64,000 nucleotides of DNA from Mactromeris polynyma (taxonomy: Eukaryota > Mollusca > Bivalvia > Venerida > Mactridae): positions 37,536,762 through 37,600,761 of the forward strand of contig JASFXZ010000003.1 of assembly GCA_032209605.1 (NCBI GenBank), read 5' to 3'. Both the position numbers and the translations under genes were made by a program. Positions 14,745-48,768 of the stretch are shown here, piece after piece (within the stretch, counting starts at the first letter, position 1; each line of letters opens with the position of its first letter). Under the pieces are notes generated by a model. That model had not been told where the DNA came from, searched no databases, and saw only the letters and a program-made list of their open reading frames with translations.

Positions 14745-15404
14745 ACCAGAAATAAAACAACAGACGTAAATACGAAATACTTGAGACTCTTTATCTTGAT
14801 AGGAGATCATGAAATGGAGAATATTTTATCCGAATTGAGTATACCACGCTGCATTCAAATGTTGCCAGTCTTCTTGTGCTGCAATATGGTTTCTTAATTA
14901 TATAACACAGTCGTAAATTGATTTGAAGTAAATGAATAATTATTGGACCGTACTCTTTTACTTTATAATCGATACATGGTTTATTGTAATTGAAAAAGGA
15001 CGCCTGACAAAGTACTACAACTGTATTAGGAATGGTTTGCATTGTCCACAACAGTTTAGAAAACGATAATGATACTTCTTGTTCCTGACAAAGTGTAATA
15101 TTTTATTCTTACATATAAATATTTTATTTCCGGATTTATATGTTGCGTTTAGTGTTGAATGCACGTAAAATTAAATGTACAGTGTTCAGATTTTTAACAA
15201 CGAATGTATAATAGCGATGTGTTTTGCAGAAGCCATATTGTTCTAGGTGTAAAACGAGAGATTGGTGCAATGTGTATAATTAAAACACTCTTGTCAATGC
15301 AAATAAGTGTAAGGCAAACCATGTCGTCTTTGTGCGGGCAGTTTGACCAACGCATCCATCAACAAACTAAAGTGGATAAAGTTATGGGCACTCGATAACA
15401 TGTA

Positions 15405-15492
15405 ACTACATCATTCTAATCAATTTACTACATCATTCTAATCAATTTACTACATCATTATAATCAATTTACTACATCATTCTAATCAATTT
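15405..15492 (+). repeat. 22-bp tandem repeat, 4 units (copy 1)
   Basis: Exactly four 22-bp units of the form actacatcattctaat plus caattt. The corresponding array in copy 2 has five units and in copy 3 four. An inverted single unit (ttgattagaatgatgt) lies at the outer edge of the internal inverted repeat near 17395-17410. Confidence 0.95.
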
Positions 15493-15759
15493 AAGTAACT
15501 TGAAATTATATCACGATACCATGAGCACAAAATGTAACACAAATCTACCGCATGGAATTAAATAGTAATACATTTCATGTGGCGATTTCTGAAAGTTAAC
15601 ATTTAATCAAACCAACAGCGCATTCCATATCCGATATAGTAGGGGATGTTTCGGTGCCTCCAGATACCCAAATACCACTAAATATATTATAACAGACTAT
15701 TGTAATTGCTAGTATCGTTGCAAAACGACAGCTTTTATTATCAAATAATGCATAAAATA

Positions 15760-15910
15760 TTGCCTCACGAAAAGCTTTCTAGGAAATTAATAAACAAAGT
15801 GTATAAACGAACCAAAATATACCAAAAATAATTCGATCCCGTTCAATATTGAGTTTTACGGTTTCTAACGGGCGCGCTAGTAGAAAATCCAAAATATTCT
15901 TCCCGTCAAC
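15760..15910 (+). repeat. Internal inverted repeat of block A, left arm
   Basis: This stretch (aaagctttctaggaaatt ... gtagaaaatccaaaatatt) is repeated in reverse complement at 17270-17400, about 1.35 kb away. The two enclose the SINE, the C-run element and the truncated second SINE. The left arm also occurs in copies 2 and 3. The right arm occurs only in copies 1 and 2. Confidence 0.8.
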
Positions 15911-16064
15911 TGGTAATTACAAACCACCATTAGGAGCATTCGTCATTATCGTTTTTTCTTATCGGATTAAAGCAGCTACATGATCGCCTAATAAACAATG
16001 TGTTAATTTCAATTATATTATTGCTTTATATCAAAAACCATTGAAATTTACATTGCAAATCAAT

Positions 16065-16332
16065 TTGATTGTTTTAATCGGGGTAAACGTGATTCATTTA
16101 ACAAGTTTTCGGTTAAATACCGCGGAAAGTTGACCCCTAACCAGATTGGCTGGAATTTATGTACAATGTACAACCAGTACTAACTTGTGTTTCCACAAGC
16201 AGCTGACAACTTCCCCAACGTGAATCAGAGGTGAAGGACAAATGACCGTAGCCGCTGCACAGACCGGGAATCGAACCAGTACCTACCGGATATCAGCCTA
16301 GCTCTAGCCAATGACCGAACCAGACGGACTGA
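16065..16332 (-). mobile_element. tRNA-derived SINE, copy in block A1
   Basis: Read on the minus strand, the tRNA-like head has an A-box-like GGTTCGGTCATTGGCTAG and a B box TGGTTCGATTCCC. The body follows: 'cacctctgattcacgttgg', 'gtcagctgcttgtgg', 'tactggttgtaca'. It ends near 'taaccgaaaacttg'. The head and body layout fits tRNA-derived SINEs of molluscs. It is shared by all three block A copies and so predates the duplication. Confidence 0.75.
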
Positions 16333-16865
16333 TATATTGTGAATCAGAGGATATAGAAGAGACATACATATTTCGTCATATTCATTTTGTATCATAAAAC
16401 AAGTTCTTAAGCTCGACGAGACAGTCCCAGCTAAACTACACCACGGATATAATTTAGAGAATGTTTGTGTAAGGGAAACCAGATGATATATTTGCTTCTA
16501 AATAAGACGAGACTATTGTTTTGCGACACATCTATCTGTGTCTGAGGCTTAATGTAAAACACAGCGGATCAACCTTTCACGATTCTAATTTCCGATATCG
16601 CATTTTGAGCGATTGTTTTATAAATTGCGAATAAATGCTTTCGCAATCCTTTCTTATTTTGTCGCGTTGGTAAGACAAAACAATCAATCGAGAAAATACT
16701 AAATCGATCCTAAATACAAACAATGCTGGTATCGTCGTTTGCACGGTAGATATAACATTGTACGGGATTATGCAAGTATTCTCCTTAATGTTGATATGAA
16801 TACATAACTATAATTAATATGTTTGTCTCAATCACTGCTCATGGATTGATTGATGACTTTATTAT

Positions 16866-17097
16866 GCCCCCCCCCCCCTTCGAAGAAGACATGGCATATT
16901 GGTTTGCACATGTCGCGGTATGTCCGTCGGTCCGTAACCTTTTCGTTTCCGATCAATAACTCAAGAAACCCTTAACCTATTATCTTCAAACTTGGTCCAC
17001 ACATTCACATTGGGTAACAGAGGAACCCTAATTATTTTGGGGTCACGGGGTCATGGTCACCGGGGGCATATCGTTTTACAAACATCTCTTGTTTGAA
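16866..17097 (+). repeat. C-run / cttcgaagaag element, copy A1
   Basis: This is an element of about 230 bp that begins with a C homopolymer and 'cttcgaagaagacatgg'. It contains 'tgtccgtcggtccg', 'ataactcaagaa' and 'ggggtcacggggtcatggtca', and ends 'acaaacatctcttgttt'. I recognise it as a very common bivalve genomic repeat. Its transposon class is not clear from sequence alone. Confidence 0.75.
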
Positions 17098-17105
17098 CTT
17101 TAATG

Positions 17106-17269
17106 GTGCTTTTAAATCACAAAGACAGACATGATCATGCAGTTAGTGTGGGCATAAACAGACACCACCGACCTTCCGTAATCCTGATGGCTAAATTCCT
17201 CATATACAAATTTTATATCCAGAGTAGATTTCGAACCTGCAGGGGTGAGGGGCAAGTATTTGAATTCAG
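17106..17269 (-). mobile_element. Second SINE, head-truncated (copy A1)
   Basis: Same body as the element at 42083-42290. The 5' head is replaced at 17269/17270 by the right arm of the internal inverted repeat. Confidence 0.65.
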
Positions 17270-17410
17270 AATATTTTGGATTTTCTACTAGCGCCCGATA
17301 GAAACCGAAAAACTCAATATTGAACGTGATCGAATTATTTTTGGTATATTTTGGTTCGGTTATACACTTGTGTATTAATTTCCTAGAAAGCTTTTGATTA
17401 GAATGATGTG
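17270..17410 (-). repeat. Internal inverted repeat of block A, right arm
   Basis: This is the reverse complement of 15760-15910, starting abruptly with aatattttggattttctac inside a truncated SINE. It continues into an inverted unit of the 22-bp repeat (ttgattagaatgatgt), which skips the roughly 270 bp that separate these parts on the left side. A counterpart exists at 28590-28730. Confidence 0.8.
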
Positions 17411-17575
17411 GTATTGTAGTTATCCCAGTGGTGTATGGGATTCACGTGTGACGTTCAATGAACCGAAGTGGTATTGTTGTTATCCCAGTGGTGTATGGGA
17501 TTCAAGTTTGACGTTCAATGAACCGAAGTGGTATTGAACTTATCCAAGTAGTGTATGGGATTTGCGAATGTTGTA
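17408..17575 (+). repeat. 60-bp tandem repeat, about 2.8 units (copy 1)
   Basis: Three successive units start gtggtattg and contain 'ttatcccagtggtgtatggg' and 'gacgttcaatgaaccgaa'. The third unit decays after 'gtatgggattt'. Confidence 0.9.
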
Positions 17576-17605
17576 TTCGTTGATTACTTGCCTTGCAATT
17601 CAACT

Positions 17606-19540
17606 TTGACAGGATGGTACTCATAAAATGTAAGTGTTGTGTGCATATGAATGTTGCAAATTAAGTTTTTCTTTTATTCAGAACAGAATACAAAATGATG
17701 AAATGCATGATCAACTACTTAAGTCCTTTGATAACATATGAATACAGTTACCTACCATTTTTGCTTCTCATAATGGGTGAGAAATAAATTTTAAAGTAAA
17801 ATAATTTGCTTATTATCATAAATTAATTTCTATCAAAATTCTCAACTCAACTCAACATGTTTATTGTGTTAAAGGCCTCCGGCCCATGCACAAACAATAT
17901 ATACACAATATGGTGACAAAATACATTGATAATACAACTGTACAAACATATCAATTTTCCGTACATGATACATATTCATTTCTTTTTTTGAATGCAAAAT
18001 ACAAAAACATGGCTAAATTCCTCAAGGTTGACTCATCCTTTTTTGCCATAAGGACATAAAAGTTTTGTAAAATTGGTACATTAGAAAAAATTTCATTGAT
18101 ATAAATTTCACGGATATCACTGTACAAGGGGCATACTAATAAGAAATGAGGTTCATCTTCCACTACCCCTTCACAATAAACACAAAATCTATAATCTCTA
18201 GGTATATTAAAATGGCGTCCCTTTTCAACCATTAAATTATGAGATGAACATCGAAACGAAGACAAACATCGTCGAAATTTGTGAATATTGATCGCAGATA
18301 AGTAATTTTCTATACCGAAATTTGTTTTAAAATTGCTATAAAATAATAATTTATTACTATTTGAACAGTTATTTCTCCAATCCTGTATATATTGATCCTT
18401 GAGCCTATTGACATACTGTAGTAAAAATAATGGAGGATTAGTCACAAAATGCATGTCAAGACAGCTGGCAACAATAGGCCAAAGGGGGTGGGGGATTAAA
18501 CACGAACGCTATATATCAAAAGAAAAAAATGCGATGTATACATACTTGAGAAATTTGATATTACTCGGAGTTATTCTTCATTGCTTGGATGTCGGATCAG
18601 TATAGTGTGTCTAAAATTGTGAAATGATCAAGTAATCCACGTCTACAGACGTCACAGGGGAGTATTGCAATCTTGACGAAAACACAATTTGGTAACGAAT
18701 AAAAGCCCTGGTAGGTTACAGGGATTTATTTTATGTTATTTTACTGTTAAATCGATTTAATTCCCCAATATTTTTACTGTCATTTTCAAGGCTATAAACT
18801 GCTCGCTGTATGTAATCTCCTTATCCCTTTCGGCCTAATATTGCTGAATTGCTTGACTTGTTCCGTGATGTGTTCCATCATTTAATACCCCCCTACCCCT
18901 TTGTTGTTCCCCCTAAGTTTTCCTTAGATGATCCTTATGGTCGGCCAGACTTTGCATTGCCCTCGCAATCACATACATGTTTAACCTTGCACATCCTCAG
19001 TGCCAAATGTTTTGTAGACTGTATCGTTCGGGGTTCTGTGTGGGGAGTCATTGTCTTATGCATATGGCTTTCCCCGCAACTCTGTAATATCCGTTTAATG
19101 TTACCGGAAAAGAATATTTGACACGTTATGATCAGTTCTTAAAGAAGATCCGCTGCATTATGATGTTAGGCACATTCCCGTCTGAGAACCTCTGAGTCAC
19201 CGTAACAGCGGTGCTAACTTAAGTAATACGGATGCACGTCCGCTGAGGAACATGATACAACTCAAACTTCAATAGGTAGTCACTCATATAAAACATAATT
19301 ATACTATGTAGGTTCAACGTAACAAAATAGTAATACCAACTCGTTGGTCAGATTGTTACATGTCGCAATTCCCAGTCGCACAGTTTTGTATGCTTACAAT
19401 CCAATCGTTTATCACAAATGTCTTATAACAACTATAATGACACCTTCTATAAATGTAACCAACCACTGTCCGATGTACGATAAAGAAGAGTATTCTGTGT
19501 TGACAAGCGTTCTTTTCGGTTGAACATTATAGGATTAAAC
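17606..19540 (+). repeat. Long inverted arm, left (copy 1)
   Basis: Apart from the inserted LINE tail, this arm matches the reverse complement of 21583-22865 and, more completely, of 35228-36577. Its inner edge is 'gttgaacattataggattaaac'. It contains a plus-oriented R1 monomer (about 18760-19085) and a G-rich run 'aaagggggtgggggatt'. With the LINE removed, the arm is about 1.3 kb. Confidence 0.85.
17840..18446 (-). mobile_element. 5'-truncated LINE tail inserted in copy 1 arm
   Basis: This insertion of about 610 bp is absent from the matching arm of copy 2. On the minus strand it encodes the C-terminal 160 or so residues of a non-LTR retrotransposon polyprotein (17951-18454): a basic helix region, then FCVYCEGVVEDEPHFLLVCP, a Cys/His pattern typical of the zinc-binding tail of reverse transcriptases. 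The 3' end is a short (gttga)n-type tail, read as ctcaactcaactcaac on the plus strand. Flanking 'caaaat/cacaaaat' looks like a short target duplication. The open frame is intact over this tail, suggesting recent insertion. Confidence 0.8.
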
Positions 19541-19653
19541 TAAGTGTTGTTGTAAAACAAAATAATATTGACTGTGCAACAACATCATGGTATTTTTGTT
19601 ATGTTAATAACTTATTTATGTTCTATATATTGTCACTGAATTACCTCCCTTTA

Positions 19654-19860
19654 TGAAAAAGTTCAGGTTTTTTAAATATTGCAATTATTTGTTGAAGAAA
19701 AACGTACTGAAGCGATTTCGAATAGGATTTTATAATTCAGATGAATTGTAAATGATCATATTTTGATATCAAGTTCAGGTTTTTTAACTATTGTAATCAT
19801 TTTTTTTAGATAAACGTGTTGAAGCAATTTCGAATAGGATTTTATAATATTTTGATATAA
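19654..19860 (+). repeat. Tandem duplication of about 100 bp, copy 1 core only
   Basis: The block 'aagttcaggttttttaa ... gaagc(a/g)atttcgaatagg ... attttataat' occurs twice in copy 1. In copy 2 (30376-30485) it occurs once. Confidence 0.8.
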
Positions 19861-20016
19861 AACAATTTTGTAACAAGTCTTATATTTTGCTTACTGATTC
19901 GTACATATACAATGGAAATGACATACTTCAATTATTGGTAGAACACCTTAAGATGTGTTATATTATAAAACAGCATTATAGACAGAAAACATATCTTGGT
20001 AATATATATCAAAAAA

Positions 20017-20040
20017 TGACGTCATCAACAAATGACGTCA
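20017..20040. promoter_or_regulatory. Pair of CRE-like TGACGTCA palindromes (copy 1)
   Basis: Two perfect 8-bp TGACGTCA sites lie at 20017-20024 and 20033-20040, 16 bp apart start to start. TGACGTCA is the CREB/ATF consensus. The pair is kept in copy 2. There is no adjacent gene, so function is inferred only from the motif. Confidence 0.35.
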
Positions 20041-20924
20041 TAATTAAGAAAGGCCTAACTGAAAGATATGCCCCAATGATATGACCAAATGTACGCAATG
20101 CGAAGATAAGATAATGGCCGATTAATAGAAAATAAAAATGATCAACCCAACTAATACTTTGACATATATAGACACACACTGGACAGCACAAAATGAACCA
20201 AGGAAAACACCAACGTAAACCCGAAACATCATAGACTCCACAACACAACACAATCCCAAAGGGCTTTTACATTGTATATTACGCAAGGAAGCATTTTCAT
20301 TTCTTTTAAGTAGGTATTGACCTTTGATGTGAATGAGTCAATGTCTAAGAAGAAATGTAAAATTGTTTTATATCCAGCCAATTTAGTAACTGTGTCTATT
20401 TAATGTATACAGTGGCAATATAACACGATAGAAATGAAACACATTGATTAATTTATCTCGCATTTACAGTAGTACAATGTACACTTAGATCAGACATCAG
20501 ACCAATTAACATTAATGCATAGAAATAAGTTTATTATTTCCTTTCCGTGATATGTTAACTGTAAATAAAACAGTAGACGTACATACGAAATACGTGAAAC
20601 CGTATATTTTAATAGGAGAACATCACGTATTGCTATTTATTCAAAATGACTATAGTACAATTAAATGTCTGGATTTCTGTACTGTCCTACAGTGTCGTAA
20701 TAATTATTAAAATTGATTTAATTTAAAAGAATATTTCGATTACTTGACGTCCCTCCATTTTTGGCAAATCAATACACTTGAGTTTCGAGCATAAACTCGT
20801 ACATTGAAACCGGATAAAGTACTTCAATTCCGCTTCATTCACAGTGAATTATTTTTATCGTTATATACAGTTTTCTGTAATTGTTAGAATAATTCCAAAT
20901 CCAGCAAATCCCTGTATTCTGATT

Positions 20925-21035
20925 GGCTAATCGGAGGCGTTCACACATGCACGAACGTCCAAATGTCATTGTATTGATGACGTAACTTAGCTGATCAAAG
21001 GCGTTTACACACAAGTATGAACGTCCTAATTTCAC
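20925..21035 (+). repeat. Core motif repeats related to the hairpin ends
   Basis: Two diverged copies of a motif, 'ggcgttcacacatgcacgaacg' shortened here to its halves ggcgttcacac and atgcacgaacgtcc, are each preceded by 'ctgattggctaatc'- or 'gctgatcaaa'-like bases. The same motif, inverted, forms the arms of the hairpin at 21484-21590. Copy 2 has counterparts at 34070-34200. Confidence 0.6.
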
Positions 21036-21483
21036 TAACGAACTACTTTCGACCTAAATCTGAGGTAAACAATATGAGCAAGTTGGGTACAATATTTTCT
21101 CAAGCAATTTGAATACACATATAGTGTATTGCTTTGCAAATTCACAACATATTTTAGAAAACAAGTTTAGATCGAGGTAGTATTAGTAACATCGACATGT
21201 TTATATAGCGCGACCTTGAACTACATTACTAGCCTACTGTTTACACGGAATAAATGATTGGTGTGGAATAATAACTGTTACGCAGAGATGTTATTACATT
21301 TAAGGCAATATCAAATATGGCTCCTGTTATGGTCTGTAAATTATGTTCACGTGTTGTGTTGGCTGTTCAACTATTTTTGTGAGTATCTATCCGCGCATTC
21401 AGTTGACACTGCGTGAGGTCAAGATGTGTATTGACGAAAAAACATCATTGGGGTCGTTTCAAAGTACTATTTGGAATTATAAA

Positions 21484-21590
21484 AATTAAACGACCATTTT
21501 TTGGCGTTCATGCATGTGTAAACGCCGATCAGAACGCAAACATTGAATAACGCCCTTCCATCATGAACGCCAACAAATGGTCGTTTAATT
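21484..21590. repeat. Core hairpin at inner edge of right arm (copy 1)
   Basis: Inverted halves start 'attaaacgaccatttt' and end 'aatggtcgtttaat', each followed inward by ggcgttcat and gaacgcc motifs. It is about 107 bp. The copy 2 version is 146 bp, so copy 1 has lost about 39 bp of stem. Confidence 0.75.
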
Positions 21591-22865
21591 CTATAATGTT
21601 CAACAGAAAAGAACGCTTGTCAACACAAAATACGCTTCTTTATTGTACATCGGTCAGAGGTTTGTTACCTTTATAGAAAGTGTCATAATAGTGGTTATAA
21701 GATATTTGTGACAAACGATTGGATTGTAAGCATACAAAACTGTGCGACTGGGAATTGCGACATGTTACAATATAACCTACGAGTTGGTCTTACTATTTGT
21801 TTACGTTGAAACTACATAGTATATGTTTGATATGAGTGACTACTAGTACCTTCTGAAGTTTGAGTTGTATCATGTTCCTCAGCGGACGTGCATCCGTACT
21901 ACTTACGTTAGCTCCGCTGTTACGGTGACTCAGAGATTCTCAGACGGTTATGTGTCTAACATCATAATCCAGCGGATCTGCGTTAAGAACTGATCATAAC
22001 TTTTCAAATATTTTTTTCTTTTCCGGTAACATTAAACGGATATTACAGAGTTCCGGGGAAAGCCGTATGCACAAGACAATGACTCCCCACACATAACTCC
22101 GAACAATACAGTCTACAAAACATTTGGCACTGAGGATGTGCAAGGTTAAACATGTACGTGATTGCGGGGGCAAGGCAAAGTCTGGCCGACCATAAGGAAC
22201 AACTAAGGAAACTTAGGGGGAACAACAAGGGGGGGTTATTAAATGATGGAATATATCACGGAACAAGTCAAGCAATTCAGCAATATTAGGCCGAAAGGGG
22301 TAAGGAGATAACATACAGCGAGCGGTTTACAGCCTTGGAAATGTCAGTAAAGATATTGGGGGGTTAAATCGATTTAACAGTAAAATATTATACAATAAAT
22401 CACTGTTACCTACCAGGGCTTTAATTCGTTACAAACTTTTGTTTTCGTCAAGATTACAATATTCCCCTGTGACGTCTGTAGACGTGGATTACTTGATCAT
22501 TTCACAATTTTAGACACACTATACTGATCCGACATCCAAGCAATGAAGGACAACTCCGAGTAATATCAAAGTTCTCAAGTATGTGTGCATCGCTTTTGTT
22601 TCTTTCACGTGATATAGCGTTCGTGTTTAATCCCCCACCCCCTTTTGCCTACTGTTGCCAACTGTCTTGACTTACATTTTGATAGAAATTAATTTATGAT
22701 AATGAGCAAATTATTTTACTTTATAATTTATTTCTCACCCATTATTAGAAGCAAAAATGGTAGGTAACTGTATGCATATGTTATCAAAGGACTCAAGTAT
22801 ATTCATAAATAAGAACAGAAATGCAATTATTTTGCATTTCATCATTTTGTATTCTGTTCTGAATA
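21583..22865 (-). repeat. Long inverted arm, right (copy 1)
   Basis: This is the inverted partner of 17606-19540. It begins after the core hairpin ('gtttaattctataatgttcaac') and ends at 'tattctgttctgaataa', where about 80 bp of the arm is deleted relative to copy 2. Confidence 0.85.
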
Positions 22866-22894
22866 ATTGTTTAATTGTTTTATATGTATTTTTA

Positions 22895-24420
22895 CTGACA
22901 GTTTAAAGACTGCAAATAGCTGTATAGTTATATTTTCTATATGTGTTTTAGATGTATGTTAAATTTCCTTTTCACCATGTGCACTTCTTTCAGTTGTAAA
23001 AGTGTTCATGTTATTTTCTCCCCTTTTTGCCAGCTGTCTTTACTTTTCCTGTGACGTATTCCATCCATTAAATCCCTCTGTTTGTTCTCATTACTTCTCC
23101 TTAGTTGTTATTTATGTCTTATACATGTATGTTACGTTCCCTTTAGTAAATAATTCTCTCTTAAATCATTAAGCTATTATATGATAAAGTACAGGATTTT
23201 GCCCGTATGTATATACTGGTTGATGAATGTTTCGTATTTTTTTCTTTCTTGTCATAAAAATAGTTTAAACACACAAGTAGATTTGTGTTTTGTATTTATA
23301 TATTTGTATACTTCTCAGATAGTACAGTATTGGTGCAGGACTTTGTAATTTGCATTCTAACCCACACAATTATAGATAAGTAACCATGTTGACGCTAATT
23401 TCTGTCTATGTTTTAGATGAAAGTAAAATGTCCTTTCCTGACATGTGCAGTTATATGTCATTGTGTACGTAATGGTTAATTGATTTTAGTTACTGCCTAC
23501 TAAGTCCATGTATGTGTATATGTTGGAATCAATGACCATCTAGCGGTTAAGTGTGAGGTAAGCTAGCTGTTAAATCGATTTAAACCCCCAGCATTATTAC
23601 TGACAGTTCCAAGGCTGTAAAGGTTATTATTCTACTAGTATTTATGTTTTAAATGTATGTTAAGAGTCCCTTTCCCGATGTTCTGTTCTTTAACTTGACC
23701 ATTCCCTGCACACCTGTTCATATAAATGTTTACCAAAGCACACCCCTCATCAGTGTCTAATGTTGTGTAGACTGTTGTTTTCCCGGGGCTCTCTGTGAGT
23801 AGGCATTGGTTTGTTGATGTGGCATTCCCTGTAACAACTTAATCTCTCTTTGATATAATATTCGTGTCCCCCTTTTTCGGTTGAGGCCACATTCTTAGCT
23901 TGTCCTATTGGTTATATTCCATCCATTCCATCCCATTTCCGCTCTATTGCCCCCTTAAAATATCAATGGTTATTTCAATAGTCACCTAGACAATTCCTTA
24001 CTTCCAATTCTCATATAGCTATTTGCCTTTACACCCTATTTGTTCGTAGGCTGGTGTTTTCCTATGCTTTAAGTAGGGAGGTATTGTCTTGTGTATGTGA
24101 CGTTCCCTGTTAGAATATAATCTTTCCTAAATATGACATTCAAAATTGGAAGTGGCTTATTGTCACGAACATAATTTATTATAATGGACGAGAAATGACT
24201 ACTTTACCCACGTACAAACAACACATTAACAATCTTAACAATAAGACCCCGTTTTGTTCTGGAGAGTCGGTCGTAGTTATAAGGTGTTCTGATCACCATG
24301 TCAAAGCGTGGAAGAACATTTGTAAACGTGTCCATGGAAATACGGTCTGTGTGGGGAGCCATTGTCTTATATATGAGGCATTCCCTGTAACAACTTAATC
24401 TCCCTTTAGTAATTAGTTGG
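22895..24420 (+). repeat. Block C: run of diverged R1 monomers (copy 1)
   Basis: At least four plus-oriented partial monomers of the R1 family follow one another. Marks are 'tactgacagttt(cc)aaggctg', 'gacgtattccatccatt', 'ctccttagttgttatt', 'gttttgtagactgt' and 'ggcattccctgtaacaactt' (about 22895-23160, 23560-23860, 23870-24120, 24330-24400). The open frame at 24195-24398 is kept in copy 2 (38014-38226) but its end lies inside the repeat. Confidence 0.65.
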
Positions 24421-26040
24421 GTTTAATTTCGAGGTTGTGTTGATGACGTTTTACTGTACTAATTAACATAATAGTACAGTATTAACTTTTGCACGATCTT
24501 AGACATGTAGCAATGCCTTCTTGTACTCGCAAACTTGCTCTCCGATATCTTGAATACTCAAAATTCTTTAAAGGCATTGTATTTCATATAGAAATTTCAT
24601 TAAACAAAAACATTAACGAGAATGTGATGACTGGTTCTTTTGTGAATAAAGTAATGACTAGTTTACCAGTTTATAATAATTAACAAAGAGACAAAACAAA
24701 TGTTGTAGCGTACTTGTTGCTCCAAAATTAAATATCCAGAGATGGTATTGATTTAAATAAAGTCGAGTTGACCGTCTAGACAGGATTCCCAATCAATAAT
24801 TCGTGAGAAAAACAAGTTGCCATTTTATTATAAAGCATCTGCGGGGGATTTCGTTTTAGTATAAACACGAACTCGCACGCTCCGCAATAACTTTCATTGA
24901 AAGTTAACTGCTTTCATGGAAGGCAAGTGTTTTGTTTGATGTAGCGAGTTTCCCAGATAATTAAACACTGTATATTGCTGTAGGTCAAATCAATCAGATC
25001 ACTCCTGAAGTGATGTGCATTCAATTAAGGGACTTTATCAGTTATTGGTGCAAACAATACCATATTCTAATGTGTTCATTTCTTATTAACGATATTTTTG
25101 CATAATATATCAAACAGCCATGTTAGAAATTATTGTTGAGCAAATCATGACGTATTAGTCATAAACAATATTTAAAGTCAATTATTGAAAGTTATTTCTA
25201 AAATATAATGAAAACAATGGTACTTAACGCCAATGTGTTTTTCATAGAAATGGCGCATATATGCTGTACTATACAGCCTACGCCGTTATTTCTAAACCCA
25301 AATTATCATTTTTTGTTAAAACTTCGTAATTACAAACAAAGATTGTTTTGTAAATGTGTTGATATATCAAATATTATGATACGATTCACATTGTTTAACA
25401 TCGCATCAAACTTCAAGTATGATATGGTTTGGCTTCGCACCATAGTCGTTTCAGTTTTCTCTATGATATTCGAGGAGGAAAACTTTAGAAAAAGAAATAT
25501 ATCTTGTCAAATGTGTTAAATGTTATACAACTGTGACGCTTGTTGCGTGTATGTGGTTGTGTGTACCCTGAAATCAAAGTAGACATGTGCAATTATTATT
25601 TATAGTGCCTCGTATCTTATCTTTATTTAGGAGGTATACACGAGAAAAAGGGGTAAATATATTCTCTATATTCCTATAGGCGTTTTTGTTTAATTCAGTG
25701 TCAGTTCTTTTGTTTTATGCGGTAACTTGGTGCAGCTCTGTGAACTTTGTGAACGTTTTATATTCCTGTGCTACAACTTCCAGGTATCGATCAAACTTTT
25801 TCAGTTTTGTTTACTTATTCAAGATGTTGTGAAATTCTCAAAAGAACTTAAATAGCATTAATTGATTTAAAAATTTGTATTCAGCTAATCAGGCCATTCT
25901 ACGGTATTTAATGAATAAAGAGTCTTCGTGCAGAAAGAAATTCCACCAATTCATTGCAACTGTTGTCATTTACCATAGTATAATGCATGCTTGGGTCAGA
26001 AATTCCGCCAATAATGCTTTGAAATATTCCCCAATCTAAT
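24421..26040. other. Block C distal part, no gene recognised (copy 1)
   Basis: This is AT-rich sequence without a recognisable domain. Copy 2 has a counterpart at 38240-39745. The open frame at 25208-25519 is broken in copy 2, so it is unlikely to be coding. Confidence 0.5.
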
Positions 26041-28416: not shown

Positions 28417-28425
28417 ACTTTAATG

Positions 28426-28900: not shown

Positions 28901-28926
28901 TGGATTACTTGCCTTGCAATTCAACT

Positions 28927-30632: not shown

Positions 30633-30656
30633 TGACGTCATCAACAAATGACGTCA
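30633..30656. promoter_or_regulatory. Pair of CRE-like TGACGTCA palindromes (copy 2)
   Basis: This is the counterpart of 20017-20040, with identical spacing. Confidence 0.35.
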
Positions 30657-31358: not shown

Positions 31359-33905
31359 CTCTCTATCTATAGGTTACATCGGCTCAGTCACACTTGACTA
31401 TTACGTGATGGGTGGTTACTGGTCAGAAGAAAGAGAAATAGTAGCAAGATTGAAAATAGCTTGACAGATAAAAGGAAGAAAAAGAATAGACTTTCCCAGC
31501 TGCTTTTTCGCCTTTCTCCCCCCAAGCCTCTTCGGTTATGGTAGCCATGGCCGACACAGCCCCGGGGATCATCAGTGGTTTACTTACAGCTGGGACCCTA
31601 CACTTAAATAGAGAGTTTGGACAGCCCCCGCTTAAAGGATACTAAGTCGGAGGCCTCTGCGATGGATGCAGGCAGGTTGTTCCATAATGTTATAGATCTA
31701 GGGAAGAAGGAGTTATTGTAGTATGCTGTAGATGTAGATATAGGCCTGTACTTCAGAGAGTGTGAAGCTCGAGTATTTGACTTGGTTGGTGTTAATAACT
31801 GGTCTGCTGGGATGTCCACTACGTCGTTGACTATCTTGAAGAACATGGTCAGTTGGGCCTTGGTTCTTCGGGCTTCCAATGATTCCCAGTCCAATTGGTC
31901 GAGCATAGATGTGACGCTGCTGGTGTTGTGGTAGCGGTTGGTGGCGTACCTTGCAGCTCTTCTTTGCACCATTTCTAACTTGTGGATCTGTGTTTTGTTG
32001 TAGGGTTTCCATATTGTTGAGCAGTATTCGAGGTGAGGTCGTACAAGGGTATTATAGGCATTGCTCTTGACAGATTTATTTGAAATTCGGAGGTTGCGTC
32101 TGAGAAAGCCTAAAGTACTGTTTACCTTTTTGGTGATTTTATCTATATGATTATTCCAGGAGAGATTTTCTGTTAGGTGGACTCCCAGATACTTGGTGAC
32201 AGTGTCTACTTCTAAGATATGTCCTTTCAGGGTGTAGTTGAATATAGTCGGTTTTCTTTTTCTGTTGACCCGTAGAATACTGCATTTTTCCGGATGAAAT
32301 GACATGCCCCACTTCTTTTCCCATGCTGCAAGGTTTTTGAGGTCATTTTGTAGGATGTTGGAGTCTTCTAATGTGTTAATTTGACGATACACAATACAGT
32401 CATCAGCAAATAGTCTTTTTTTTAGGAGACATGTTGAGGAAGGTCATTGATGAACGCCAGGAACAGAATGGGACCGAGGACACTGCCTTGTGGTACACCG
32501 CTGATGACAGACTCTGGTTCTGAGTTAGCACCATCAACCACAACTCTCTGGGTCCTGTTAGAAAGGAAGGCTTTGATCCAGACTAAAGTGCTGCCTCTTA
32601 CGCCATAATGGTCAAGCTTTGCTCGTAGGTTAACAACTGTGTCTCACAGCTTCGTCTTTTTCTGAACCCATGCTGGCTGTCTGTTAGAATGTCATGGTTA
32701 TCAAAATGATTCATCATCCTGCTTACTATAACATGCTCTAGGAGTTTGCAGCAGATACATGTGAGGGAGACAGGTCTATAGTTGCTGGCCTTGAAACGTT
32801 CACCCTTTTTGAAGATGGCGGATACATTTGCAGTTCTCCAGACCTCTGGGATGTCACCGTTTGCTAGACACTTCCTGTAAATAATGCAGAGGAAAGGGGA
32901 ACACTGGTCAGCTAGTTCTTTCAGGAGTCTTGCTGGAATCATGTCAGGCCCTGTCGCTTTCTGGGGGTTGAGCTGATTTAGGAGCTTTAGAATTCCTGTT
33001 GTCTCCACTTCGATGTCAGGCATTGGTGGGAATGGTTAACCCCCTGGCTGTGGTAAAGATGATGTATCCTCACATGTAAAAACTGATTTGTACTGTTGGT
33101 TAAGGATGTTAGCTTTATCTACTGGGTCGTTGAATAGTCTGCCCTTGTCTTTCAGAGGAGAAATGCCACAATTGTCTTTCTTCAGCGATTTGATGTAGTT
33201 CCAGAAGCGTTTCTGTTTGCTTGGTCTCTGGTCTGGGTCATCAACAGGATCTTCTATGAGTCCTTCAATACATTTCCAATATTCTTGTCTCTCTTTTGGG
33301 TTTTACTGCGAGCTTTTTCATATGTACTTCTATCACATAATTTACCGGAGGATTTCTGTTACTGTATAGTTTCTTTAATCTTCTAAGGTTTGATTTCACC
33401 AGTTTATTTACCCATGGTTTGTTGGTCTTATTTCCAGAGACTAGTTTTGATGGTACATGTTTATTCATGAGGTTCATGAGTTTCTCTTCAAATGTTTTCC
33501 ATGTACTATTGACGTCCATGTGCTGGGTGGTGTTTGAGAAGTCTTCAAAATACTGATCGAGTTCATCTTTCATCTTCATGAAGTCTGCTTTTTTGTATAA
33601 ATAAACTTTTCTTGCTGGCTTTTTCAGTTTCATGGGGCGCAGGCTGGACTCTATGAAGACAGCGTCATGGTCACCTATGCCAGGGAGAACTTCACATTTG
33701 TTGACGAGAGAGATGTTGTTGGTGAAAAATAGATCTAGTATATTGCTGGTATAAGTTGTTGTTCTTGTAGGGGAAATAACTATCTGTTCTAGGAAATGGT
33801 CTCGAGTTACATCAATTAGTTGTTGGCATTGTCTTGTTTGCACTGCACTGGGTTTTGGGCATTCGTTGGACCAGTCAATGTCTGGTAAGTTAAAATCCCC
33901 TCCAA
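31359..33905 (-). mobile_element. 5'-truncated CR1/jockey-like LINE inserted in copy 2 core
   Basis: The insertion interrupts sequence that is continuous at 20730-20760 in copy 1. On the minus strand it runs from inside the endonuclease (GGDFNLPDIDW at its very start) through RT to a 3' region of about 240 bp with no poly-A. At the 5' junction, the LINE's 'tggaggg' matches the genomic 'tggaggg' of the empty site, so the join shows microhomology. About 12 bp of target appears lost on the other side. The clade is inferred from motif style. Confidence 0.85.
31604..33905 (-). pseudogene. LINE endonuclease-reverse transcriptase, broken
   Basis: Order on the minus strand: endonuclease C-terminal half (about 33905-33265; GDFNLPD, LDLFFTN, GIGDHDAVF), linker, RT N-terminal part (33023-32598; NPQKATGPDMIP, IFKKGER, NYRPVSL, SQHGFRKRRSCE), then VPQGSVLGPILF, FADD at 32399-32410 and thumb/C-terminal region (32392-31604; KYLGVHL, RPHLEYC, LEMVQRRAARY). 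Defects visible: frameshifts between the open pieces, one at an A run just before FADD (about 32411-32425); and an internal deletion near 32617 that joins LLTYE directly to KLDHYG and removes RT motif A with its catalytic aspartate. The element cannot be active. Confidence 0.85.
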
Positions 33906-34363
33906 GCCATTTTTGGCAAATCAATACACTTAAGTTTCGAGCAAAAATCGTACATAGAAACCGGATAAAGTACTTCAATTCCGCTTCATTCACAGTGAAT
34001 TATTTTTATCGTTATATACAGTTTTCCGTAATTGTTAGAATAATTCCAAATTCAGCAAATCCCTGCATTCTGATTGGCTAATCGGAGGCGTTCACACATG
34101 CATGAACTTCCAAATGTCATTGTATTGATGACGTAACTTAATTCTGCATTCTGATTCGCTAATCAAAGGCGTCTACACAAGTATGAACGTCCTAATTTCA
34201 CTGACGAACTACTTTCGACCTAAATCTGAGGTAAACCATATGAGCAAATTGGGTACAATATTTTCATAAGCAATTTGAATACACATATAGTGTATTTATT
34301 TGCAAATTCACAACATATTTAAAAAAAAAACATGTTTAGATCGAGGTATTATTAGTAACATCG

Positions 34364-34787
34364 TTATTTATGGAAAAAAAGACTCATGACAGACAATTTA
34401 ATTAAGAGACGGAGTGGTCCAGAATTCTAAAAAATTCCATTTCATTCCTCCTACTCCTAGTCCTACTTTGTAGATTCAGAATCCGTCCGTTCAATAATGA
34501 AGATATTGCGAGCGGCAGCACGTGAAATTTGTTGTTGGTATGATTTCTATTACATTACGTAATTTAGCTAGCATTTAATCTAGTCTTAGTCATCTGATTT
34601 CGCGACCATTTCTTTCAGTTTCACAAAACGTGTTATAAACAGCATAATTATAGTATTCTCTTAGAATCACGTCTTCCATAGTTATACGAAATCCGGTATG
34701 TTTACAAGTTTATCTATCCTAGTTTCTGCTTGAAAGCTCCCTTCAGCGACGTTTTAACGTGAGAATTTCATCCGATGCGCGCTCATC
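34364..34787. mobile_element. Unidentified insertion of about 424 bp in copy 2 core
   Basis: Copy 1 reads 'gtaacatcgacatgtttat' without a break (about 21186-21205). Copy 2 has 424 extra bases between 'aacatcg' and 'cgacatg', flanked by catcg/catccg. It has no long open frame, and no clear inverted ends. It contains 'attacattacgtaattt'. Class unknown. Confidence 0.65.
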
Positions 34788-35087
34788 CGACATGTTTATC
34801 TAGCGCAACCTTGAACTGCATTACTAGCCTACTGTTTACACGGAACTAATGATTGGCGTGGAATAATAACTGATACGCAGAAATGTTATTACATTTAATT
34901 TAATATCAAATATGGCTCCTGTTATGGTCTGAAAATTATTTTCACGCGTTGTTTTGGCTGTTCAACTCGGTACTATTTTTGTGTGTATCTATCCGCGCAT
35001 TCAGTTGACACCGCGTGAGGTCAAGATGTGTATTGACGAAAAAACGTCGTTGGGGTCGTTTGAAAGTACTATTTGGAATTATAAGGA

Positions 35088-35234
35088 TTAAACGACCAAT
35101 TTGTGGCGCTAATGCAGGTGTAAACGCCGATTAGTCCGCACGTATTTGGCATAAAGCCCTTCCGGGCTTTATTCAATGTGTGCTTTCCGATCGGCGTTAA
35201 CACATGCATGAACGCCAATAAATGGTCGTTTAAT
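35088..35234. repeat. Core hairpin at inner edge of right arm (copy 2)
   Basis: This is the longer form of 21484-21590. Its arms pair through 'ggattaaacgacca', 'gtgtaaacgccgat' and an inner 'aaagcccttccgggcttt' palindrome. It sits exactly where the right long arm begins. Confidence 0.8.
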
Positions 35235-36577
35235 CCTATAATGTTCAACAGAAAAGAACGCTTGTCAACACAGAATACTCTTTTTTATAGTACATTGGAC
35301 AGTGGTTGGTTACATTTATAGAAGGTGTCATTATAGTGGTTATAAGATATTTGTGATAAACGATTGGATTGTAAGCATACAAAACTGTGCGACTGGGAAT
35401 TGCGACATGTAACAATCTGACCTACGAGTAGTAGTATTTTTAACGTTGAACCTACATAGTATAATTATGTTTTATATGAGTGACTACCTACTGAAGTTTG
35501 AGTTGTATCATGTTCCTCAGCGGACGTACATCCGTATTACTTAAGTTAGCACCGCTGTTACGGTGACTCAGAGATTCTCAGACGGGAATGTGTCTAACAT
35601 CATAATGCAGTGGATCTGCTTTAAGAACTGATCATAACGTGTCAAATATTTATTTCTTTTCCGGTAACATTAAACGGATATTACAGAGTTGCGAGGAAAG
35701 CCATATACATAAGACAATGACTCCCCACACAGAACCCGGAACGATAAGTCTACAAAACATTTGGCACTGAGGATGTGCCAGGTTAAACATGTATGTGATT
35801 GCGGGGGCAAGGCAAAGTCTGGCCGACCATAAGGAACATCTAAGGAAAACTTAAGGGGAACAACAAGGGGGGGGGGGTATTAAATGATGGAATACATCAC
35901 GGAACAAGTCAAGCAATTCAGCAATATTAGGCCGAAAGGGGTAAGGAGATAACATACAGCGAGCGGTTTACAGCCTTGAAAATGTCAGTAAAGATATTGG
36001 GGGGTTAAATCGATTTAACAGTAAAATATTATACAATAAATCACTGTTAACTACCAGGGCTTTAATTCGTTACAAACTTGTGTTTTCGTCAAGATTGCAA
36101 TACTCCCCTGTGACGTCTGTAGACGTGGATTACTTGATCATTTCACAATTTTAGACACACTATACTGATCTGACATCCAAGCAATGAAGAACAACTCCGA
36201 GTAATATCAAATTTCTCAAGTATGTGTGCATCGCTTTTGTTTCTTTCACGTGATATAGCGTTCGTGTTTAATCCCCCACCCCCTTTTGCCTATTGTTGCC
36301 AACTGTCTTGACTTACATTTTGATAGAAATTAATTTATGATAATGAGCAAATTATTTTACTTTATAATTTATTTCTCACCCATTATTAGAAGCAAAAATG
36401 GTAGGTAACTGTATGCATATGTTATCAAAGGACTCAAGTATATTCATAAATAAGAACAGAAATGCAATTATTTTGCATTTCATCATTTTGTATTCTGTTC
36501 GGAATAAAACAAAAACTTAATTTGCAATATTCGTATGCACACAACACTTTCATTTTATGAGTACCATCCTGTTAAAG
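35228..36577 (-). repeat. Long inverted arm, right (copy 2)
   Basis: This is the fullest right arm. It reaches 'gagtaccatcctgttaaag', the inverse of the left arm's outer end (tttgacaggatggtactc). It carries a minus-oriented R1 monomer with a long G run near 35870. Confidence 0.85.
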
Positions 36578-36604
36578 TATTTTTCTCGTTTAATTGTTTT
36601 AAAT

Positions 36605-38240
36605 GTATTTTTACTGACAGTTTAAAGACTGCAAATAGCTGTATGGTTATTATTTCTATATGTGTTTAAGATGTATTAAATTTCCCTTTCACCATGTGTG
36701 CTTCTTTCACTTGTAAAAGTGTTCATGTTATTTTCTCCCCCTTTTGCCAGCTGCTTTACTTTTCATGTGACGTATTCCATCCATTCAATCCCCCTGTTTG
36801 TTCTCATTACTTCTCCTTAGTTGTTATTTATGTCTTATGTATGTAACGTTCCCTTTAGTAACTAATTCTCTCATAAATCATTAAGCTATTATATGATAAA
36901 GTACAGGATTTTGCTCGCATGTATGTACTGGTTGATTAGTGATGATTGTTTCGCATTTGTTTCTTTCTTGTCATAAAAAAAGTTTAAACGCACAAGTAGA
37001 TTTGTGTTTTGTATTCATATATTTGTATACTGCTCAGATAGTACAGTATCGGTACAGGACTTTGTAATTTGCATTCTAACCCACATAATTATAGATAAGT
37101 AACCATGACGCTAATTTCTGTCTATGTTTTAGATGAAAGTAAAATGTCCTTTCCTGACATGTGCAGTTATATGTCAATGTGTACGTAATGGTTAATTGAT
37201 TTTAGTTACTGCCTACTAAGTCAATGTATGAGTATATGTTGGAATCAATGACCATGTAGCGGTTAAGTGTGAGGTAAGCTAGCTGTTAAATCGATTTAAA
37301 CCCCCAGCATTATTACTGACAGTTCCAAGGCTGTAAATCGTTGTATGGTTATTATTCTATTTATGTTTTAAATGTATGTTAAGTTCCCCTTTCCCGATGT
37401 TCAGTTTTTTTTACTTGATAGAATAGTCATGTTCATCCCCCCTTTCGGCCTATTATTACGGACTTTCATGACTTGTTCTGTGCTGTATTCTATTCATCAA
37501 TATTTGCCCGTTTGTAACCTCGGCCAGACCATTCCCTGCACCCCTGTTCATATAAATAATTACCATAGCACCTCCCTCATCAGTGTCTAATGTTTTGTAG
37601 ACTGTTGTTTTCCCGGGGCTCTCTGTGAGTAGGCATTGGTTTGTTGATGTGGCATTCCCTGTAACAACTTAATCTCTCTTTGATATAATATTCATGTCCC
37701 CCTTTTTCGGCCGTGGCCACATTCTTAGCTTGTCCTATTGGTTATATTCCGTCAATTCCATCCCATTTCCGCCTTATTGTCCCCTTAAAATATCAATGGC
37801 TATTTCAATAGTCACTCAGACAATTCCTTACTTCCAATTCCCATATAGCTATTTGCCTTTACACCCTATTTTTTCGTAGGCTGGTGTTTTCCTATGCTTT
37901 AAGTAGGGAGGCATTGTCTTGTGTATGTGACGTTCCCTGTTAGAATTTAATCTTTCCTAAATATGACGTTCAAAATTGGAAGTAGCTTATTGTCACGAAC
38001 ATAATTTATTAAAATGGACGAAATGACTACTTTACCCACGTGCAAACAACACATTAACAATCTTAACAATAAGACCCCGTTTTGTTCTGGAGAGTCGGTC
38101 GTAGTTATAAGGTGTTCTGATCACCATGTCAAAGCGTGGAAGAACATTTGTAAACGTGTCCATGGAAATACGGTCTGTGTGGGGAGCCATTGTCTTATAT
38201 ATGAGGCATTCCCTGTAACAACTTAATCTCCCATTAGTAA
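36605..38240 (+). repeat. Block C: run of diverged R1 monomers (copy 2)
   Basis: This is colinear with 22895-24420 and slightly longer in the second monomer (about 37310-37670). There, an R1 portion missing in copy 1 is retained ('cccccctttcggcctatt'). Confidence 0.65.
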
Positions 38241-40412
38241 TTAGTTGGGTTTAATTTCGAGGTTGTGTTGATGACGTTTTACTGTACTAATTAACATAAT
38301 AGTACAGTATTAACTTTGAAATTCGCACGATCTTAGTAATGTAGTAATGCCTTCTTGTACTCGCAAACTTGCTCTCCGATATTATGAATACTCAAAATTC
38401 TTTAAAGGCATTGTATTTCATATAGAAATTTCATTAAACATTAACGAGAATGTGATGACTGGTTTCTATGTGAATAAAGTAATTAATAGTTTACCAGTTT
38501 TATAATAATTAACAAAGAGACAAAAAAATGTTGTAGCGTACTTGTTGCTCCAAAATTAAATATCCAGATTTGGTATTGATTAAAATAAAGTCGATTTGAC
38601 CGTCTAGACAAGGATTCCCAATCAATAATTCGTGAGAAAAACAAGTTGCCATTTTATAATACAGCATCTGCGAACTCGCACGCTCCGCAATAACTTTCTT
38701 TGAAAGTTAAATGCTTTCATGGAAGGCAAGTGTTTTGTTTGATGTAGCGAGTTTCCCAGATAATTAAACACTGCATATTGCTGTAGGTAAAATCAATCAG
38801 ATCACTCCTGAAGTGATGTGCATTCAATTAAGGGACTTTATCAGTTACTGGTGCAAACAATACCATATTCTAATGTGTTCATTTCTTATTAACGATATTT
38901 TTGCATAATATATCAAACAGCCATGTTAGAAATTATTTTTGTGCAAATCATGACGTATTAGTCATAAACAATATTTAAAGTCAATTATTAGAGTTATTTC
39001 TAAAATATAATGAAAATAATGGTACTTAACGCCAATGTGTTTTTCATAGAAATAACACATATATGCTGTATTATACAGCCTACGCCGTTATTTCTAAACC
39101 CAAATTATCATTTTTTGTTAAAACTTTGTAGCAAATTACAAACAAAGATTGTTTTGTAAATATGTTGATATATCAAATATTATGATACGATTCACATTGT
39201 TTAACATCGCATCAAACTTGAGTATGATATGGTTTGGCTTCGCACCATAGTCGTTTCAGTTTGCTCTATGATATTCGAGTAGGTAAACTTTAGAAAAAGA
39301 AATATATCTTGTCAAATGTGTGAAATGTTTTACAACTGTGACGCTTGTTGCATTTATGTGGTTGTGTGCACCCTGAAATCAAAGTAGACATGTGCAATTA
39401 TTATTTATAGTACCTCGTATCTTATCTTTTATTTAGAAGGTACACACGAGAAATAGGGGTAAATATATTCTCTATATTCCTATTGGCGTTTTTGTTTAAT
39501 TCAGGGTCAGTTCTTTTGTTTTATGCGGTAATTTGATGCAGCTCTGTGAACTTTGTGAAAGTTTTATATTCCTGTGCTACAACTTCCAGGTATCGATCAA
39601 ACTTATTTAGTTTTGTTTACTTATTCAAGATGTTGTGAAATTCTCAAAAGAACGTAAATAGCATTAATTGATTTAAAAATGCATGCTTGGGTCAGAAATT
39701 CCGCCAATAATGCTTTGAAATATGTTTATTATTCCCCAATCTAATATGTGAAATAGAAATAAAACGTAAATACGAAATACTTGAAACTCTTTACCTTGAT
39801 AGGAGATCATGAAATAGAGAACATTTTATTTGAATTGAGTATACCACGCTGCATTCAAATGTTGCCAGTATTCTTGTGCTGCAATATGGTTTCTTAATTA
39901 TGTAACACAGTCGTAAATTGATTTGAAGTAAATGAATAATTATTGGACCGTACTCTTTTACTTTATAATCGATACATGGTTTATTGTAATTGAAAAAGGA
40001 CGCCTGACAAAGTACTACAACTGTATTAGGAATGGTTTGCATTGTCCACAACATTTTAGAAAACGATAATGATACTTCTTGTTCCTGACAAAGTGTGATA
40101 TTCTATTCTTACATATAAATATTTAATTTCCGGATTTATATGTTGCGTTTCGTGTTGAATGCACATAAAAGACAATCATTTAATGTACAGTGTTCAGATT
40201 TTTAACAACGAGTGTACAATAGCGATGTGTTTTGTAGAAGCCATGTTGTTCTAGGTGTAAAACGAGAGATTGGTGCAATGTGTATAATTAAAACACTCTT
40301 GTCAATGCAAATAACGGTAAGGCAGACCATGACGTCTTTGTGCGGGCAGTATGACAAATGTATCCATCAACAAACTAAAGTGGATAAAGTTATGGGCACT
40401 CGATAACATGTA

Positions 40413-40500
40413 ATTACATCATTCTAATCAATTTACTACAGCATTCTAATCAATTTACTACATCATTCTAATCAATTTACTACATCATTCTAATCAATTT
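40413..40500 (+). repeat. 22-bp tandem repeat, 4 units (copy 3)
   Basis: This is the same repeat as at 15405. One unit has a T-to-G change (acagcattc). Confidence 0.95.
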
Positions 40501-41069
40501 AAGTAACTTGAAATTATATCACGATACCATGAGCACAAAATGTAACAAATATCTACCGCATGGAATTAAATAGTAATAAATTTCATGTGTCGATTTCTGA
40601 AAGTTAACATTAAATCAAACCAACAGCGCATTCCATATCCGATATAGTAGGGGATGTATCGGTGCCTCCAGATACCCAAATACCACTAATATATTATAAC
40701 AGACTATTGTAATTGCTAGTATCGTTGCAAAACGACAGTTTTTATTATCAGCAATGCATAAAATATTGCCTCACGAAAAGCTTTCTAGGAAATTAATACA
40801 CAAGTGTATAACCGAACCAAAAAATACCAAAAATAATTCGATCACGTTCAAAATTGAGTTTAACGGTTTTTATCGAGCGCGCTAGTAGAAAATCCAAAAT
40901 ATTCTTCCCGTCAACTGGTAATTACAAACCTCCGTTAGGAGCATTCATCATTATCTTTTTTTCTTATCGGATTAAAGCAGCTACATGATTGTCTAATAAA
41001 CAATGTGTTAACTTCAATTTTATTATTGCTTTTTATCAAAAACCATTGAAATTTACATTGCAAATCAAT

Positions 41070-41335
41070 TTGGTTGTTTTAATCGGGTAAGACGCCATTC
41101 ATTTACCAAGTTTTCGGTTAAAAACCGCGGTCAGTTGACCCACCAACCAGAGTGGCTGGAATTTATGTACAACCAGTACTAACTTGTTTTTCCACAAGCA
41201 GCTGACAACTTCTCCAACGTGAATCAGAGGACAAATGACCGTAGCCGCTGCACAGACTGGGAATCGAACCCGTACCTACCGGATAACAGCCTAGCACTAG
41301 CCAATGACCGAACCAGGCGGACTGATATATTGTGA
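41070..41335 (-). mobile_element. tRNA-derived SINE, copy in block A3
   Basis: This is the counterpart of 16065-16332. It has a small internal deletion (gaatcagaggacaaatg) removing about 8 bp relative to the other two copies. Confidence 0.75.
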
Positions 41336-41844
41336 ATCAGAGGATATAGAAGAGACATACATATTTAGTCATATTCATTTTGATTCATAAAAACGAGACA
41401 GTCCCAGCTAAACTACACCACGGATATAATTTAGAGAATGTGTGTGTAAGGGAAACCAGATGATATATTTGCTTCTAAATAAGACGAGACTATTGTTTTG
41501 CGACACATCTATCTGTGTCTGAGGCTTAATGTAAAACACAGCGGATCAACATTTCACGATTCGAATTTCCGATATCGCATGTTGAGTGATTGTTTTATAA
41601 ATTGCGTATAAATGCTTTCGCAATCCTTTCTTATTGTGTCGCGCTGGTAAGACAAAAACAATCAATCGAGAAAATACTAAAGCGATCCTAAATACAAACA
41701 ATGCTGGTATCGTCGTTTGCACGGTAGATATAACATTGTACGGGATTATGCAAGTATTCTCCTTAATGTTGATATGAATACATAACTATAATTAATATGT
41801 TTGTCTTAATCACTGCTCATGGATTGATTGATGAGTTTATTATG

Positions 41845-42076
41845 CCCCCCCCCCCCTTCGAAGAAGACATGGCATATTGTTTTGCACATGTTGGTCGGTA
41901 TGTCCGTCGGTCCGTAACCTTTTCGTTTCCGATCAATAACTCAAGAACCCCTTAACCTATCTTTCTCAAACTGTGTCCACACATTCACATTGGGTAGCAG
42001 AGGAACCCTAATTATTTTGGGGTCACGGGGTCAAGGTCAACGGGGGCATAATGTTTTACAAACATCTCTTGTTTGA
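41845..42076 (+). repeat. C-run / cttcgaagaag element, copy A3
   Basis: This is the counterpart of 16866-17097. It differs with 'atgttggtcggtatgtccg' and 'ggtcaaggtcaacggggg', which are closer to what I recall of the common form. Confidence 0.75.
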
Positions 42077-42082
42077 ACTTTA

Positions 42083-42290
42083 TTGGGGGCTTTTAAATCA
42101 CAAAGACAGACATGATCATGCAGTTAGTGTGGGCATAAACAGACACCACCGACCTTCCATAATCCAGATGGATAAATTTCTCATATACACATTCTATATC
42201 CCGAGTAGATTTCGAGCCTGCAGCGGTGAGGGGCAAGTATTTAAATTCAGCGACCATAGTCTCTCGGTTACAGCTAGCCTGTTGAATTAC
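42083..42290 (-). mobile_element. Second SINE with head retained (copy A3)
   Basis: The minus strand reads a head 'gctagctgtaaccgagaga', 'atggtcgctgaatttaa', a B-box-like 'caggctcgaaatc', then the body 'atggaaggtcggtggt' and 'cccacactaactgcatga'. The body resembles a mollusc SINE. Only this copy keeps the head; the counterparts at 17106-17269 and 28426-28589 are cut at the same base. Confidence 0.65.
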
Positions 42291-48718: not shown

Positions 48719-48768
48719 TGGCGAAACAAATATTATATTCTCTATTTCAGTAATTAATGTTATTTGTC

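What the first reader, a model, noticed from the sequence alone, without database searches (positions are those of the whole stretch)
14745..42250. Tandem array of a composite unit built around long inverted arms
By eye, 14745-26040 and 26041-39745 are colinear over their whole length, and 39746-42250 is a third partial copy. Each full unit holds two inverted arms of about 1.3 kb around a 2-kb core. No transposase, integrase or polymerase gene is visible in the core, so the unit is not an obvious autonomous element. It could be a large non-autonomous foldback element, or a segmental duplication of repeats.
Basis: seen in the sequence. Interest (0 to 1): 0.75.

Follow-up and report, generated by a model that had tools for sequence, protein, structure and literature searches.

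The report
Tandem duplication with old inverted repeat
A stretch of animal DNA, probably from a clam-like mollusc, holds two full copies and one partial copy of an 11-kb block in a row, each full copy with an old mirror-image repeat inside; it looks like ordinary duplication of repeat-rich DNA, not a newly found mobile element.

Summary
The repeats are real: U1 14748-26040, U2 26041-39745 and U3 39746-42250 are direct copies (95-96% identical by substitution); U1 and U2 each hold inverted arms of about 1.33 kb. Corrections: the core is 2 kb in U1 only; in U2 it is 5 kb and holds a broken LINE with endonuclease and reverse-transcriptase remains. The arms (92-93% alike in their outer part) are older than the unit duplication, and the inner part of arm B2 is A-like where B1 is not (diagnostic sites 35:10 against 2:32, 0 of 20000 permutations), which points to gene conversion between inverted arms. 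No target duplication was found at the ends of the U2 inverted repeat. The host genome search did not complete (8 calls), so dispersed copies are untested. Best reading: a tandem segmental duplication, probably in a bivalve, of a block with an old inverted repeat, later hit by retroelements. A decayed foldback-like element inside is possible.

The parts
14748..26040 (+).
26041..39745 (+). Copy U2, longer through private insertions
39746..42250 (+). Partial copy U3; stops within 2 bp of the inner edge of the small right inverted repeat (equivalent of 17269)
17603..19540 (+). Arm A1 of the large inverted repeat, interrupted by the U1-only insertion
17834..18445 (-). U1-only 0.6-kb insertion in arm A1, read as a LINE 3' fragment: open frame with 3 database relatives (one named, Mactra antiquata), TTGAG-repeat end; possible 6-bp target duplication that is not significant alone (39 of 300 random end pairs as good)
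   Evidence: sequence
19541..21582 (.). Core of the inverted repeat in U1, 2.04 kb; no stop-to-stop frame of 95 aa or more in it
21583..22866 (-). Arm B1; outer 78 bp missing relative to B2
28924..30256 (+). Arm A2, complete (1333 bp)
30257..35227 (.). Core of the inverted repeat in U2, 4.97 kb with insertions
31359..33906 (-). U2-only broken LINE (endonuclease and reverse-transcriptase remains in separate frames); no target duplication better than random (208 of 300)
34362..34787 (.). U2-only 426-bp insertion, unidentified
35078..35242 (.). Imperfect palindrome (MITE-like) at the inner end of arm B2; folds as DNA with z -10.2, 0 of 200 shuffles as good
35228..36578 (-). Arm B2, complete; inner part A-like (mosaic)
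15770..15900 (+). Small inverted repeat, left arm in U1 (U2 27109-27237, U3 40776-40905)
17268..17395 (-). Small inverted repeat, right arm in U1 (U2 28588-28715; absent from U3)
20510..20623 (+). Short repeat in the core that recurs across the U2|U3 line (39705-39810), in part at the U1|U2 line (26039-26112), and from 14750 on in U1

Best explanation
This is a tandem segmental duplication in repeat-rich DNA of an animal, probably a bivalve mollusc. An older inverted duplication (two 1.33-kb arms around a roughly 2-kb core) already sat in the locus. Later a block of about 11 kb was duplicated in tandem, so that two full copies and one cut-off copy remain. After that the copies went separate ways: a LINE-type fragment entered arm A1 of the first copy, a LINE entered the core of the second, small deletions accumulated, and about half a kilobase of the inner part of arm B2 was overwritten from an A arm by gene conversion between inverted arms. 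Shown by alignment: copies, arms, private insertions, age order, mosaic arm. Inferred: unequal exchange or a replication-based event as the cause of the tandem copies, and gene conversion as the cause of the mosaic. No encoded function is proposed.
For: Unit to unit 10044 of 10461 aligned bases identical (96.0%), and 96.0, 95.1 and 96.2% in the part that all three copies share. Arm A to arm B 92.1-93.4% in the outer part, while A1-A2 and B1-B2 there are 98.1 and 98.0%, so the arms predate the units. Private insertions in one copy and none in the other, one with LINE domains and one with a relative in the clam Mactra. Mosaic: 35 arm-diagnostic and 10 B1-only sites outside alignment column 849, 2 and 32 inside; 0 of 20000 permutations reach this. 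No target duplication at the U2 inverted-repeat ends: 395 of 400 random end pairs score as well or better. The window is rich in other repeats, some of them weak relatives of arm pieces (394-667, 2791-3042, 23567-24408).
Against: The outer arm ends are sharp in the alignment and begin alike (ACTTTRACAGG), as a transposon's would. Old target duplications may have decayed. Dispersed copies were not tested. The donor of the conversion is not settled: A2 is favoured over A1 by 10 to 4 sites counted by hand from the site list, and sites that changed only in A1 would look the same. Two arm-diagnostic sites (columns 1319, 1329) lie inside the supposed tract, so it is patchy or shorter. The permutation treats sites as independent.
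Confidence: 0.72

Rival explanations
1. The inverted repeat (5.3 kb in U1, 7.7 kb in U2) is a decayed non-autonomous foldback-like DNA transposon with 1.33-kb terminal inverted repeats; it inserted once and was then carried along in a segmental duplication.
For: Long arms with sharp outer ends and a core in U1 without a frame of 95 aa or more; sizes like Tetris of Drosophila virilis, whose repeats reach 1,735 bp around a middle domain without apparent coding capacity (PMC4079207, passages).
Against: No target duplication of 4-12 bp within 10 bp of the U2 ends better than random; Tetris has 8-10 bp. No tandem array within the arms. No second copy of the whole inverted repeat outside the array in 64 kb.
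Confidence: 0.18
2. Part of the array is an assembly effect: two diverged haplotypes of a heterozygous animal laid end to end.
For: 96% identity with copy-specific insertions is also what diverged alleles might show (that expectation is recalled, not tested).
Against: Three copies all differ from each other by 4-5%, and a diploid has two alleles; no N in the window; the stretch across the join between units occurs twice (25982-28589 with 39678-42250). So at least one tandem copy should be real.
Confidence: 0.1
3. The B2 mosaic is not conversion of B2 but replacement of B1's inner part by a diverged arm from elsewhere.
For: B1 carries the private differences in the inner part.
Against: B1's inner identity to the A arms (92.1-92.6%) is the same as its outer identity (92.1-92.7%), as for a copy that was never overwritten.
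Confidence: 0.1

Closest known systems
Tandem segmental duplication with nested transposable elements
   Same: Direct copies in a row, fairly even divergence, copy-specific insertions and deletions
   Different: Nothing tested here sets it apart, except that the block carries a large inverted repeat
Palindromes with arm-to-arm gene conversion (mammalian X and Y palindromes; PMC8981503 and PMC3723533, start of abstract in the search listing only)
   Same: Local homogenisation between inverted arms
   Different: Arms here are 92-95% alike over their length, not over 99%; the sign is a patch in one of two units; no gene recognised in the arms; chromosome unknown
Foldback elements (Tetris of Drosophila virilis; PMC4079207, passages)
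   Same: Kilobase inverted repeats, non-coding middle in U1
   Different: No target duplication found, no tandem array in the arms, no dispersed copy seen in the window
Satellite-like repeats carried by Helentron elements in the Pacific oyster (PMC7492417, search listing only)
   Same: Probably also a bivalve, with short tandem runs in the unit (22 bp and 60 bp)
   Different: The 11-kb unit is far longer; Helitron ends were not looked for

Membership tests
Foldback transposon | Long terminal inverted repeats | tested here: met
   1.33-kb arms; that they are the ends of an element is not shown
Foldback transposon | Target site duplication, 8-10 bp in Tetris | tested here: not met
   U2 ends only (B1 lacks its outer end): best score reached by 395 of 400 random end pairs (offset up to 10) and by 279 of 400 (offset up to 2); an old one could have decayed
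Foldback transposon | Internal tandem repeats in the inverted repeats | tested here: not met
   none of the 14 rows lies inside the arms; the 22-bp and 60-bp runs lie outside them
Foldback transposon | Dispersed copies with the same ends | tested here: inconclusive
   None outside the array in the 64-kb window; host genome search did not complete
Tandem segmental duplication | Adjacent direct copies of long non-satellite sequence | tested here: met
Tandem segmental duplication | Copies diverge independently (private insertions) | tested here: met
Tandem segmental duplication | Present in the chromosome, not only in the assembly | not testable with these tools
   no reads on hand; no N in the window
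Converting palindrome | Arm tracts more alike than their history predicts | tested here: met
   change point at column 849, 0 of 20000 permutations; two sites inside the tract go against a single unbroken tract

The most novel reading that the evidence does not exclude
The inverted repeat is an undescribed family of large non-autonomous foldback-like element in molluscs, with 1.33-kb ends starting ACTTTRACAGG, whose arms promote both tandem duplication of their neighbourhood and gene conversion between inverted copies.
Probability: 0.12. Interest if true: 0.4.

Novelty: new member of a known kind. Interest (0 to 1): 0.22.

Why it matters
As it stands it matters little beyond the locus: it is a clear small example of how repeat-rich animal DNA is built up (inverted duplication, then tandem duplication, then retroelement insertion and arm-to-arm conversion), with an order of events that can be read from one sequence. 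It is also a caution that the boundaries of a tandem unit seen by eye need not be the duplication junctions.

Tried and rejected

Viral contigs were scanned for two patterns from the arms as a long shot: 0 matches each. Rfam at gathering score: 0. ARAGORN with the bacterial code: 0 tRNAs.

Target duplications: none at the ends of the U2 inverted repeat; the one of the U1 insertion (6 of 6 bases) is not significant alone (39 of 300 random end pairs); those of the U2 LINE and the 426-bp insertion are no better than random (208 and 204 of 300). So that these pieces are insertions rests on their absence from the other copy and, for two, on their protein relatives.

A templated-insertion (MMBIR) origin for the small inverted repeat at 17268 was considered because U3 breaks off there. 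Its left-right identity (87.7-93.9%, gaps counted) overlaps with that among the left arms (92.6-97.3%) and of the right arms (94.8%, with some flank), so it cannot be dated against the duplication, and I do not claim it.

Pfam for the arm frame 18816-19121 and for frames at 296-703 and 2770-3183: nothing above a cut-off. Frames given to Pfam: 10 of the 38 listed, plus 4 overlapping ones.

Papers: 'mollusc' with 'long terminal inverted repeats', 'non-autonomous' and 'transposon' gave 0 papers; the listings (haplotypic duplication, templated insertion, bivalve segmental duplication) were seen as listings only and not used further. The library is open-access papers only, so nothing is claimed about what is in print.

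Full report
What was checked. The window was compared with itself by BLAST, the copies were aligned, and the four arms were aligned and scored. The window contains only A, C, G and T; G+C in 2-kb steps runs from 0.31 to 0.45.

The array. U1 (14748-26040), U2 (26041-39745) and U3 (39746-42250) are direct copies. Substitution identity U1/U2 is 10044 of 10461 (96.0%) over the alignment; in the stretch that all three share it is 2395/2494, 2364/2486 and 2399/2494 for U1-U2, U1-U3 and U2-U3. In 5 triplet-shuffled windows the best non-self match was 38.3 bits, one giving none, against 4849 bits for the best real pair.

Phase. At U2|U3 the sequence left of the line still matches the core just left of 20562 (score 18.5, 0 of 2000 shuffles as good), at U1|U2 weakly so (8.5, 14 of 2000), at the left edge of U1 not beyond chance (3.5, 258 of 2000). 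So 26041 and 39746 are probably ordinary internal sequence, and the array is cut at 14748 on the left. On the right it ends at 42250, within 2 bp of the inner edge of a small inverted repeat (right arm 17268-17395 in U1, 28588-28715 in U2). Which of the two array edges is original cannot be told from this window.

The inverted repeat. In U2 the arms are complete, 28924-30256 and 35228-36578; in U1 arm A (17603-19540) is interrupted by 0.6 kb and arm B (21583-22866) lacks its outer 78 bp. The outer ends of A1, A2 and B2 read ACTTTRACAGG, and likeness stops there in the alignment. No direct repeat flanks the U2 ends beyond chance.

Private insertions. U1 alone has 611 bp (17834-18444) with a minus-strand open frame; of 9 candidates 3 database proteins match it, one of them named, a hypothetical protein of the clam Mactra antiquata (48% identity, 95% coverage, which sees only proteins of similar length). 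Pfam and NCBIfam give nothing above cut-off. I read it as a LINE 3' fragment from the TTGAG-repeat end in the sequence; this is an inference. U2 alone has 31359-33906 with Exo_endo_phos_2 (39.8 bits, cut-off 27.4) and two RVT_1 pieces (27.6 and 29.3 bits, cut-off 29.6) in separate minus-strand frames, so a broken LINE. Among the 120 listed of 2433 matches the organism names are Dreissena, Mya and Mercenaria (bivalves), Nucella (a gastropod) and symbiont MAGs of Candidatus Thiodiazotropha, which I take to be contamination from their clam hosts (recalled knowledge). U2 alone also has 426 bp at 34362-34787.

Order of events. In the outer part of the arms A1-A2 and B1-B2 are 98.1 and 98.0% alike and A-B pairs 92.1-93.4%; so the inverted duplication is older than the tandem one. 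In the inner part B2 is 96.9% like A2 and 96.2% like A1 but only 92.1% like B1. Among 79 sites that either separate both A from both B arms (37) or set B1 alone apart (42), the best split, at column 849, gives 35:10 outside and 2:32 inside; none of 20000 permutations reached this. The simplest account is gene conversion of B2 from an A arm after the tandem duplication. Against a single clean tract: two arm-diagnostic sites near the inner end. The donor is weakly A2 (10 to 4 sites, counted by hand from the list).

Host. That the host is a mollusc, probably a bivalve, therefore rests mainly on the LINE and insertion relatives. The species is unknown.

Mobile element or not. The features of foldback elements were taken from the Tetris paper (PMC4079207, passages): long inverted repeats, internal tandem repeats, non-coding middle, 8-10 bp target duplications. 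Two of these were tested and not met here, and dispersal could not be tested. I therefore do not file it as a foldback element, while allowing that an old one could look like this.

Conclusion. The arm mosaic is the most informative detail.

Noticed in passing
12381-12731 (+): Exon with a copine / RGLG-like vWA domain (Pfam Copine E 2.7e-34), the only host-gene piece recognised among the 10 of 38 frames of 95 aa or more given to Pfam there.
   Followed up: partly
47796-48530 (+): Tc1/mariner-type transposase piece (HTH_Tnp_Tc3_2 E 7.5e-10), about 240 bp from the 48770-49848 array.
   Followed up: partly
48770-49848: Array of about 65 copies of a 17-bp unit with a higher-order period of 347 bp and strong AT skew (0.49 over 48001-50000).
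   Followed up: no
9086-10004: Array of about 29 copies of a 32-bp unit.
   Followed up: no
394-744, 2791-3042, 23567-24408, 37283-38230, 46842-46888, 57325-57370: Old dispersed repeat family (matches of 67-89%) that also makes up part of the large arms; frames of 135 and 137 aa lie over it at 296-703 and 2770-3183, without a Pfam match.
   Followed up: partly
16481-16698 and 55857-56079: A 220-bp piece of the unit recurs outside the array at 84% identity.
   Followed up: no
5127-5236, 54710-54881, 60359-60456: Short self-complementary palindromes (75-89%), MITE-like.
   Followed up: no
42581-42874 (-): By eye a degraded reverse-transcriptase piece in the right flank of the array; no Pfam or NCBIfam match.
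   Followed up: partly
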